A stretch of 64,000 nt of DNA from Desulfurococcales archaeon (GTDB taxonomy: Archaea; Thermoproteota; Thermoprotei_A; Sulfolobales; AG1): assembly GCA_009903825.1 (NCBI GenBank), contig WYEN01000104.1:1-64000 (forward strand), read 5' to 3'. Shown here piece by piece: positions 47,358-49,383 of the stretch. Numbering within the stretch: position 1 is the first letter of the stretch; every line of letters begins with the position of its first letter. The translations under genes were made by a program, and so were the position numbers. The notes beneath the pieces are model-generated. The model saw nothing but the letters and a program-made list of their open reading frames with translations. It had not been told where the DNA came from and did no database searches.

Positions 47358-47703
47358 GTGAGTCATCTGAGATTTATTAAGACAAAAGCTGAGGAGATAT
47401 ATATTGTCAGACTAGAACCTGGAGAGAAGATTCCTGAGACATTGATCAGATTGGCTGATTCTGAGAAGACACAGTTTCTAATATTCTATGGGTTAGGAGG
47501 TTTTAGAAGAGCTAGAATAGGATTTTTTAAAGAGGCATCAGGATACGAGATTATTGAGATAAGATCTGGAGAGAATAGAGCTGTAGAAGTTGCATCGATA
47601 ATAGGATCTGTGATATGGAATGGAGAGAGATATCATCCACATATACATGTGGTCCTGGGCTTAACATATAGTGGAGATGTGAGAGAGACTTATTCATACG
47701 CTG
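47358..47703 (+). pseudogene. PCC/DUF296-domain protein, 5' part, interrupted by an IS element
   Basis: The first 115 codons match the plants-and-prokaryotes conserved (PCC/DUF296) domain: YIVRLEPGEKIPETLIRLAD, FLIFYGLGGFRRARIGFF, and ERYHPHIHVVLGLTYSGDV with its metal-binding histidines. The frame runs into the IS element at TYSYA and would stop at 47723. Removing 47704-49273 rejoins it in frame with 49274-49383 to give a 151-residue protein. The GTG start at 47358 lies inside its own GAGGTG; a CTG nine bases later has better spacing, so the start is uncertain. Confidence 0.85.
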
Positions 47704-47860
47704 ATGACCCCTCCCCGCCCTAAAGGGCGGGGTTTCGAACCTCTGGGTCTCGGGTGTTAGCCCTCTGGCGGGGGATTAATGATTTCACGCCGTTATGTGA
47801 TATCAAATAGCTCTCAATTTTTCTTGTTGTTGTAATCTTGTATCCTATTCTTCTTGCTAT
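47704..47860 (-). ncRNA. Predicted TnpB guide RNA (omega/reRNA) from the element's right end
   Basis: TnpB nucleases use an RNA made from the 3' end of tnpB and the right end of the IS, with the guide supplied by flanking DNA. Here the tnpB stop (47720-47722) falls inside the right-end hairpin, so scaffold and gene overlap. The guide would be the adjoining interrupted gene, beginning CAGCGTATGAATAAG on the minus strand. The 5' limit given is arbitrary; no direct evidence of transcription exists. Confidence 0.35.
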
Positions 47861-49210
47861 GTTTAATGCCGCATTTATATCTGCATTAATCTTTTTATTA
47901 GTTTTTCTACATATGTATAGTCCTCTATATATTCTTCCATTTTTATGTATTTCTCCACATATAGAACATTTTATACTTGTATGATCCTCAGGGACGATCT
48001 CAACGTCTATCCCGTACTCTATAAACACATCTATCATCCACAATATTATCTTTCTATACCACCATATGTTATTGTTGTACTCATTACCATTATATTGTGA
48101 GAGCATAATAGGGTATCCAATATATATCTTCATAACTCCTCTACTCCATAATGTCTCAGCTAGAAATCTAATAGCTGTTCTATAGAGATGTCTAAGCCTC
48201 TCATCTCTTTTATATAATGCTTTAAGATATTTCTCATGATAATCTTTCCATCTATGGATCCCAGCGTTTCTAAGCAGATCTCTAACAGCTTGATATGTAG
48301 AGATCTCTCTTTTCCACCAGTAGTATTCAGATTTAATAGATCCTCCTTTGACAAGGAATGCTGATCCGTCTGAGACTACCACAGCAAACAAATTGTTAAG
48401 ACCTATATCTATGAAAGCCTTTTTATCTCCAACAGGATCTCTCTGTTTGATACTTTTAGGATCAACGATCCTATTTTTCTTATCTTTATAATTAGGCATT
48501 ATATAGCCCTTTGGATTTGATTTAGAAGGTTTTTCTCCAACTTCTATAGGTATATAAGCAAACCATCTGCCAGCCTCATAAATAATTTCTAGTCTCCCCT
48601 GTTTGCCTTCCCACTTGATCCTGCCAACATATCTTATACTAAGTTTAAAATCTTTAAGAACCAGACGACCCTCACCTTTATTAATAGGCTCTAAATAATA
48701 TCTATCGTTTCTAATCAACATATAGATCTTCTTTTCTCCTGTGATCTTATCTTTCCAATATCCTGGCGGAGAAATCTTTCTGATATGAGGCGGTAATCTT
48801 CTCTGTCTCTTCATTTTCAAAAGCTCAAAAAATGATTCCCAGGCCTCCTCATTTTTATTAATTACTTGACCAGCATTAACACCTAGAAAATTCTTATACT
48901 TATGATAATATCTTCTGTTGATCTCAATTCTTTTCTCAGGCTTCAGATCGTTCTTAAAAAACAGCTGTCTCTTCTCATAATTAAGCTCATTCCACAACCT
49001 CACAGATGTCAATCCTATGTTAAACAATATCTCCTCCTCATGTTTCTCTGGAAGCAGTCTCAGCCTTACAGCTCTTTTATTACTCTTCTTTCTCTTCTCA
49101 ACAAGCTCTCTAAAAAACTGAAGAGGGTCGGAATCTCTGACGGACACACCTCGGGGATTCCCCCCGCCGGACATTCTAAATTTTCTGTCCGCCAAAGACC
49201 CGACCCACAA
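47720..49210 (-). CDS. tnpB: RNA-guided nuclease TnpB (IS605 OrfB family), altered active site
   Basis: The core starts near RAVRLRLLPEKHEEEIL; RuvC-I Asp is in AFIDIGLNNLFAVV and RuvC-III Asp in NADINAALNIARR. At the RuvC-II place the sequence is KIYIGYPIML, with Gly where Glu is usual; a Glu follows later in VPEDHTS. The zinc ribbon has CSICG and one further Cys in YICRKTN, so three of four ligands. The protein may use a rearranged Glu, as some archaeal TnpBs do, or be nuclease-weak. The start may be TTG 49210 or ATG 49174. Confidence 0.88.
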   Translation of the reverse strand: MWVGSLADRKFRMSGGGNPRGVSVRDSDPLQFFRELVEKRKKSNKRAVRLRLLPEKHEEEILFNIGLTSVRLWNELNYEKRQLFFKNDLKPEKRIEINRRYYHKYKNFLGVNAGQVINKNEEAWESFFELLKMKRQRRLPPHIRKISPPGYWKDKITGEKKIYMLIRNDRYYLEPINKGEGRLVLKDFKLSIRYVGRIKWEGKQGRLEIIYEAGRWFAYIPIEVGEKPSKSNPKGYIMPNYKDKKNRIVDPKSIKQRDPVGDKKAFIDIGLNNLFAVVVSDGSAFLVKGGSIKSEYYWWKREISTYQAVRDLLRNAGIHRWKDYHEKYLKALYKRDERLRHLYRTAIRFLAETLWSRGVMKIYIGYPIMLSQYNGNEYNNNIWWYRKIILWMIDVFIEYGIDVEIVPEDHTSIKCSICGEIHKNGRIYRGLYICRKTNKKINADINAALNIARRIGYKITTTRKIESYLISHNGVKSLIPRQRANTRDPEVRNPAL

Positions 49211-49273
49211 AATATTATAAAAACTTATAAAATATACCCCCCGCCCTAAAGAGCGAGGCTTGCACTTATGCTG

Positions 49274-49383
49274 GCCATTTGATTGAGGCTGAGATCTATC
49301 CTCTTATGGAGCTTTTTATGATGAAAGTCTCTGGCATAAACATTGATGCTCTCAAAGATCTTATGCCGCATAGATTTAGATAA
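49274..49383 (+). pseudogene. PCC/DUF296-domain protein, 3' part, separated by the IS element
   Basis: This fragment encodes GHLIEAEIYPLMELFMMKVS and the ending KDLMPHRFR with TAA, the typical end of the PCC/DUF296 domain. It has no start of its own. It is in frame with the 5' part at 47358-47703 when the IS is removed, giving TYSYA-GHLIEAE across the junction with no lost or added base. Confidence 0.85.

What the first reader, a model, noticed from the sequence alone, without database searches (positions are those of the whole stretch)
47720..49210. TnpB with no canonical RuvC-II glutamate and an incomplete zinc ribbon
The RuvC-II strand reads KIYIGYPIML with Gly at the usual Glu, and the zinc ribbon has three of four cysteines. 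RuvC-I and RuvC-III Asp remain. It may be a clade with a relocated Glu (EDHTS is a candidate) or a nuclease-dead, RNA-guided DNA binder similar in idea to TldR repressors.
Basis: partly seen in the sequence, partly recalled or inferred. Interest (0 to 1): 0.5.

Follow-up and report, generated by a model that had tools for sequence, protein, structure and literature searches.

The report
Archaeal TnpB with relocated catalytic glutamate
This is an ordinary multi-copy archaeal jumping-gene RNA-guided DNA cutter whose catalytic glutamate sits at a known alternative place, so it is most likely an active enzyme rather than a dead one.

Summary
The frame 47720-49210(-) encodes a TnpB with Gly365 at the usual RuvC-II Glu and three of four zinc cysteines. 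The nuclease-dead reading does not hold. Glu408 (PEDHTSIKC) lies exactly six residues before the zinc motif: the published 'alternative glutamate' (Ealt) of Fanzors and some TnpBs (PMC10711439). Of 174 aligned TnpBs, 123 have Glu only at the alternative site, 49 only at the canonical site, none at both; one is cut by a contig end and one has Asp at the canonical site. Asp268, Glu408 and Asp444 are kept in 8 of 8 full copies, under purifying selection (dN/dS 0.12-0.22). The element has intact ends, splits a PCC-domain gene, and its right end carries a conserved RNA-like fold. The missing fourth cysteine is a lineage feature: 34 of 34 Ealt proteins with the first three cysteines but no fourth have a histidine that could replace it. 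I file it as a solo-tnpB (IS1341-type) element with a DΦG/Ealt TnpB: a new member of a known kind. Cleavage is untested, and triad distances could not be measured (no model coordinates). A stronger catalytic-residue oddity in this genome is an IS607 TnpB with His at the RuvC-III Asp (contig C25).

The parts
47704..49273 (-). whole element (1570 bp, solo tnpB, no tnpA); right end at 47704, left end near 49273; GCTG lies just outside the right end (47700-47703) and at 49270-49273, so the left boundary can slide by 4 bases and a 4-bp duplication is not excluded in this copy
   Evidence: right end ...GGGGTCAT in all 9 copies that reach it; excision restores an open PCC-domain frame (SYAGHLIEAE)
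47720..49210 (-). TnpB frame (TTG start, 496 aa; true start may lie downstream)
48407..48409 (-). RuvC-I catalytic Asp268 (FIDIG)
   Evidence: D in 113 of 113 aligned proteins
48116..48118 (-). Gly365 at the canonical RuvC-II Glu position (KIYIGYP)
   Evidence: the profile of 11 Ealt proteins puts its Gly on the Glu of AsCas12f IQMEDL
47987..47989 (-). Glu408, alternative RuvC-II glutamate (PEDHTSIKC, ExxxxxxC)
   Evidence: definition in PMC10711439
47879..47881 (-). RuvC-III catalytic Asp444 (INADINA)
   Evidence: D in 110 of 113 aligned proteins; 2 rows have a gap there and L012 has His
47900..47968 (-). zinc ribbon Cys415, Cys418, Cys434, Thr437, with His422 as possible replacement ligand
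47705..47783 (-). 3' part of the predicted guide RNA (omega/re-RNA) scaffold: three helices ending at GGGGTCA, overlapping the end of tnpB
47713..47732 (-). right-end hairpin CCCCGCCC/GGGCGGGG
49239..49258 (-). left-end hairpin, resembling the right-end hairpin
47358..47703 (+). 5' part of the interrupted PCC (DUF296) gene; the bases just before 47704, read on the minus strand, are the expected guide
49274..49383 (+). 3' part of the interrupted PCC gene

Best explanation
It belongs to the DΦG/Ealt class, in which the catalytic RuvC-II Glu is carried by the strand just before the zinc ribbon (Glu408) instead of the preceding strand (Gly365). Asp268, Glu408 and Asp444 most likely bind two metal ions and cut DNA next to a TGA(C)-like motif, guided by an RNA made from the tnpB 3' end plus right end, with the bases downstream of GGGGTCAT as guide. 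Shown here: the residues, their conservation and mutual exclusion, the element ends, a conserved right-end fold, the fold match. Inferred: RNA guidance, metal binding, cleavage, the target motif, and help from a Y1 transposase that is not in the assembly.
For: Glu408 fits the published ExxxxxxC spacing of Ealt (PMC10711439). In the first 113 aligned proteins, 98 have Glu only at the alternative site (95 Gly, 3 Ser at the canonical one) and 14 only at the canonical site (12 Pro, 2 Ala at the alternative one); one row is cut off; none has both (rows are kin). A second set of 61 gives 25, 35 and one Asp/Pro row. A tree of 109 rows of the first set needs one change between the classes (split support 88). 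Eight copies: dN/dS 0.12-0.22, dS 0.37-0.56 over 28 pairs, triad in 8 of 8. Synonymous change is suppressed in the last 22 codons (2 of 16 against 160 of 311 codons, p=0.003). The right-end fold has 92% of cells paired and 11 cells with double-sided changes. Three other TnpBs that I read in this genome (L040, L041 and the 237-aa frame L042) are canonical: REDL, DPNGTS, four Cys. The model (pLDDT 81) matches ISDra2 TnpB with Z 21.6 over 322 residues and mimivirus Fanzor2 with Z 17.5 over 359; Glu408 follows strand 402-407. Fanzor SpuFz1 cuts dsDNA with D383/E541/D606 (passages).
Against: No coordinates were available, so triad distances are unmeasured. I saw no assay of an archaeal Ealt TnpB in the listings. 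No Y1 transposase was found in the assembly (94.87% complete). Purifying selection on the triad would also be seen if the residues served metal-dependent DNA binding. The left flank reads TGAC in 6 of 9 copies; the window copy has TGGCC. Synonymous change is equally low in the first 22 codons (2 of 15), so low variation is not special to the right end. In control (a) two of five measures did not exceed the shuffles, and the search pattern itself fixed most of helix 2.
Confidence: 0.88

Rival explanations
1. Nuclease-dead, RNA-guided DNA binder (TldR-like): loss of the canonical Glu abolishes cutting and the protein represses or marks its target.
For: The canonical Glu is Gly in 8 of 8 copies. 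Cas12m2, with a non-canonical triad, silences by binding (passages of PMC10442227).
Against: A glutamate is present at the known alternative site, and in 172 of 174 aligned proteins exactly one of the two sites has Glu. Both aspartates are kept. Seven full-length copies in the genome with both ends, unlike the TldRs described in the passages, which are tied to non-transposon genes.
Confidence: 0.05
2. Ealt TnpB with shifted biochemistry (compatible with the best explanation): cuts target dsDNA but has lost collateral single-strand cutting, as reported for SpuFz1.
For: SpuFz1 showed no robust collateral activity (passages); PMC10711439 suggests that the moved Glu may reduce trans-cleavage (passages).
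Against: I saw no such test of an archaeal Ealt TnpB. For comparison, SisTnpB1 did not cut DNA lacking a target, but that was not a test of target-activated collateral cutting.
Confidence: 0.35
3. Decaying transposon gene: zinc ribbon and RuvC-II are being lost by drift.
For: One Cys is missing; a decayed relative with stop codons exists in the genome (L010).
Against: dN/dS 0.12-0.22 in all 28 pairs; the same Thr437 and His422 in 8 of 8 copies and in L013 at 57% identity.
Confidence: 0.02

Closest known systems
DΦG/Ealt TnpBs (Yoon et al. 2023, PMC10711439)
   Same: Asp-Ile-Gly at RuvC-I, Glu six residues before the first zinc Cys, no canonical Glu
   Different: Fourth zinc Cys absent, so the paper's four-Cys search pattern does not match it; as I rendered that pattern it matches 12 of the 123 Ealt proteins here. 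The paper's tree used a wider set than the pattern.
Fanzor2 and pro-Fanzor TnpBs
   Same: Alternative Glu; fold match to mimivirus Fanzor2 9b0l
   Different: RuvC-I is DIG, not DPG; solo tnpB element with hairpin ends rather than IS607
ISDra2 TnpB and SisTnpB1 (canonical TnpBs; canonical Glu of SisTnpB1 inferred from its D187/E271/D335 spacing)
   Same: Fold; IS200/IS605 context, with tnpB-only elements also described in S. islandicus; structured right end with the guide downstream
   Different: Glu at the canonical site; the canonical TnpBs read in this genome have Pro at the alternative site and four Cys
TldR
   Same: Canonical Glu missing
   Different: TldRs have an inactivated RuvC and are tied to non-transposon genes (passages); here the triad is complete by alignment and the gene lies in an element with both ends

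Membership tests
TnpB (guided_TnpB, NF040570) | score over the curated family cut-off | tested here: met
   102.1 bits against 100
TnpB (guided_TnpB, NF040570) | TnpB/Cas12f fold | tested here: met
   Z 21.6 to 8exa over 322 residues, rmsd 3.3; by Foldseek E-value Cas12f chains come first
TnpB (guided_TnpB, NF040570) | RNA-guided DNA cleavage | not testable with these tools
   needs an assay
DΦG/Ealt TnpB class | D-Φ-G at RuvC-I (Φ = I, L, F, W, Y, M in the paper) | tested here: met
   DIG here; of the 123 Ealt proteins 113 fit the paper's set and 10 have DVG; none has DPG
DΦG/Ealt TnpB class | Glu six residues upstream of the zinc motif, none at the canonical site | tested here: met
DΦG/Ealt TnpB class | four-Cys CxxC...CxxC zinc finger (part of the paper's search pattern, not of its Ealt definition) | tested here: not met
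   CxxC...CxxT
DΦG/Ealt TnpB class | Glu408 placed with both Asp in the active-site pocket | tested here: inconclusive
   secondary structure fits but no coordinates were available
Fanzor / pro-Fanzor | DPG at RuvC-I together with Ealt | tested here: not met
   DIG
TldR | RuvC active-site residues lost | tested here: not met
   Asp268, Glu408, Asp444 all kept
TldR | domesticated: no transposon ends, linked to a non-transposon gene | tested here: not met
   both ends present and flanks differ between copies; neighbouring genes of the other copies were not annotated, and present mobility was not tested
IS200/IS605 family, IS1341-type (solo tnpB) | hairpin ends, variable base after the right end, tnpB alone | tested here: met
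IS200/IS605 family, IS1341-type (solo tnpB) | no target duplication | tested here: inconclusive
   GCTG lies on both sides in the window copy; by eye no shared duplication in the other copies
IS200/IS605 family, IS1341-type (solo tnpB) | Y1 transposase acting on the element | tested here: inconclusive
   no PF01797 match in the assembly, which is incomplete

The most novel reading that the evidence does not exclude
In this archaeal Ealt clade two ligand sites have moved: the catalytic Glu to the strand before the ribbon, and the fourth zinc ligand from the second Cys knuckle to a His near the first (CxxC-x3-H...C), or to CxxC...CxxH in a sister group. Such enzymes are largely missed by four-Cys signatures and may cut DNA without collateral activity.
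Probability: 0.35. Interest if true: 0.4.

Novelty: new member of a known kind. Interest (0 to 1): 0.25.

Why it matters
It corrects a tempting misreading: a missing canonical RuvC-II Glu does not mean a dead TnpB. Screens for dead (TldR-like) TnpBs that check only the canonical column would wrongly flag this class, and screens for Ealt enzymes that require four zinc Cys would miss most of it (111 of the 123 here). The family is probably thermophilic (inferred from its relatives), compact and multi-copy with a defined right end, so it is a practical test of what the moved Glu does.

Tried and rejected
Rejected: nuclease death by loss of the canonical Glu; decay; Fanzor or pro-Fanzor membership (DIG, not DPG). 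I first thought zinc-Cys loss always goes with Ealt (four Cys in 1 of 98 Ealt against 14 of 14 canonical), but the second set gave four Cys in 13 of 25 Ealt and 23 of 35 canonical, so the two traits are separable and the first figure reflected sampling around the query.

Led nowhere: the search for related loci in genome contigs gave one locus; no Y1 transposase in the genome; Rfam gave only three matches, all below gathering scores (mycoplasma_FSE 31.4 bits of 88, HgcC 19.9 of 50, sot0042 14.7 of 88); RNAalifold on the near-identical copies showed no double-sided change in 33 pairs. A large TnpB classification paper (PMC10691335) is not held, so what it says about relocated glutamates or ribbons was not seen.

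Sampling limits: of 170 viral-contig relatives the best 80 were kept. Of 136 distinct frames over 40 bits, those under 340 aa were dropped, leaving 113 rows. Four partial rows (L008, L027, L138, L156) were dropped before the tree, which holds only the first set. In the second set, 30 loci were the tool's picks, one per genome, and 40 were regions that I chose by hand for open frames; frames of 330 aa or more were then kept if they matched an HMM of the first alignment (70 of 84), and the 61 new ones include L040 and L041, which came from the PF07282 search. PF01385 matches this protein over 256-367, which includes the canonical Glu column. It is no random sample. For one search I used 18 of the 23 right ends found; the pattern required GACC and GGTCA, which fixes much of helix 2, and the structure was drawn by eye from these sequences. 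A pattern scan for left ends in the three short elements found none within 6 edits; I read left-end-like hairpins there by eye. Of the 34 proteins without a fourth Cys, L159 and L192 have a Cys one position earlier.

Full report
What is there. The minus-strand frame 47720-49210 encodes a 496-aa TnpB (Pfam and NCBIfam). Residue numbers below count from the TTG at 49210. RuvC-I is FID268IG, the canonical RuvC-II strand reads KIYIG365YP, then VPE408DHTSIKC, ribbon C415-x2-C418...C434-x2-T437, RuvC-III INAD444INA.

Where the glutamate went. PMC10711439 (section 23 read whole, otherwise passages) defines an alternative RuvC-II glutamate, Ealt, six residues upstream of the zinc motif. It is found in Fanzors and some TnpBs, which form a DΦG and a DPG clade. 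Glu408 is at exactly that spacing. I aligned 113 TnpB proteins from this genome, from related genomes and from viral contigs. 98 have Glu at the alternative site with Gly (95) or Ser (3) at the canonical one; 14 have Glu at the canonical site with Pro (12) or Ala (2) at the alternative one; one row is cut off by a contig end; no row has both (Fisher p 4e-18, but rows are kin). A second set of 61 proteins, 59 of them found in the phylum with Pfam's OrfB_IS605 model rather than with this protein and 2 from the own genome, gave 25 alternative, 35 canonical and one with Asp at the canonical site. Over all 174: 123, 49, one Asp row and one cut-off row. A profile of 11 Ealt proteins, this one included, aligned to AsCas12f, puts its Gly on the Glu of IQMEDL and its alternative Glu on the Pro of DPQYTS. 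A tree of 109 rows of the first set needs one change between the two states. In this genome L040, L041 and the shorter L042 are canonical, with REDL, DPNGTS and four Cys: a useful internal contrast.

Is it alive? The genome holds seven full-length copies and two cut by contig ends; an eighth full copy is in a record titled Thermoproteus sp. CP80. Over the 28 pairs of these eight, dN/dS is 0.12-0.22 with dS 0.37-0.56, and the three acidic residues are kept in 8 of 8. So the copies are diverged and under purifying selection. This speaks against decay; it argues for, but does not prove, catalysis.

The element. The right end GGGGTCAT is conserved in the 9 copies that reach it, then sequence diverges. 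The left flank reads TGAC in 6 of the 9 copies that have it; the window copy has TGGCC. Removing 47704-49273 restores an open PCC-domain (DUF296) protein, SYAGHLIEAE. This joined protein aligns through the junction to uninterrupted homologues in four genomes of the order, with a gap of six or seven residues shortly before the junction. Hairpins at both ends, a variable base after the right end, and tnpB alone point to an IS1341-type member of IS200/IS605. GCTG lies on both sides of the window copy, so a 4-bp duplication is not excluded there. No Y1 transposase was found in the 94.87%-complete assembly. Three short elements with this right end but no tnpB lie on contigs C22, C111 and C39; left-end-like hairpins were read there by eye, after a pattern scan had found none. 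They suggest that the ends can be mobilised in trans.

The RNA. Synonymous change is suppressed in the last 22 codons (2 of 16 codons against 160 of 311, p 0.003), but also in the first 22 (2 of 15), where the left end may overlap the frame or the frame may not be coding. The right ends of 18 elements from several sub-families fold into three helices, the outermost ending at the guide: 92.3% of cells paired, 11 cells with changes on both sides, in three pairs; sliding the partners gave at most 2 such cells. Two of five measures did not exceed the shuffles, and helix 2 was partly fixed by the search pattern. This supports a conserved guide-RNA scaffold; transcription is not shown.

The structure. 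AlphaFold2 with a 44-row alignment gave pLDDT 81 and pTM 0.77. Glu408 follows strand 402-407; Gly365 lies in strand 359-366; Asp268 in strand 263-269; Asp444 is at the start of helix 443-454. By VIA-align the highest Z is ISDra2 TnpB (21.6, rmsd 3.3, 322 residues), tied within 1 with a Cas12f chain (20.9); mimivirus Fanzor2 has Z 17.5 (rmsd 4.1, 359 residues). By Foldseek E-value Cas12f chains come first. No coordinates were on hand, so I could not measure the triad. SpuFz1 binds two magnesium ions with D383, N385, E541 and D606, cuts dsDNA and shows no robust collateral cutting (passages of PMC10432273 and PMC11423790). That E541 is the alternative Glu is my inference from PMC10711439.

The zinc ribbon. 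Among Ealt proteins with the first three Cys but no fourth, 30 of 34 have a His within six residues after CxxC, 29 of them as CxxC-x3-H like His422 here (counted from the list), and the other 4 have CxxH at the second knuckle; among four-Cys proteins 15 of 52 have such a His (Fisher p 5e-8, kin not independent). A His ligand in this domain has a precedent in Cas12m2 (HCCC, passage). So the ribbon may well still bind zinc. In 50 of 95 Ealt rows of the tree, all from viral contigs, the first and third Cys are not both present, so zinc may be dispensable in much of the class. My rendering of the published four-Cys pattern (spacing read as 120-160) finds 12 of the 123 Ealt proteins here.

Verdict. 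Relocated glutamate, not a dead enzyme; known class, new archaeal member. The interest lies in correcting the misreading and in the second possible relocation, that of the zinc ligand.

Noticed in passing
L260 (G000:C25:10277-12089) and L166/L262 (G004:C40): IS607-type pair, serine TnpA followed by a TnpB with canonical Glu and four Cys but His in place of the RuvC-III Asp (NAHYVACLN / NVHYVACLN), in two genomes at 63% protein identity over residues 104-430 (the G004 frame is interrupted). A better candidate for an altered nuclease than the gene in the finding, though GtFz1 cuts with Asn at its third position (passage).
   Followed up: partly
G000 contigs C22:6742, C111:32166, C39:2566 (L266-L268): Three short elements with the right end of this family (and left-end-like hairpins read by eye) but no tnpB, MITE-like; they could supply guides in trans.
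   Followed up: partly
L039 (NZ_LCWM02000055.1): An 87%-identical copy in a 3.9-kb, 2.4x-coverage contig titled Thermoproteus sp. CP80: transfer, or a contaminant contig.
   Followed up: no
window 47358-47703 and 49274-49383: A PCC-domain (DUF296) gene is split by the element.
   Followed up: yes
L022 and viral-contig loci such as L065, L074: Ealt TnpBs with no Cys at the ribbon positions but the alternative Glu kept.
   Followed up: partly
L238, L240 (G102): Ealt TnpBs in open frames of 578 and 536 aa with FIDLGV, GLPY/GYPY and four Cys, perhaps the state before Cys loss; not placed on the tree.
   Followed up: no
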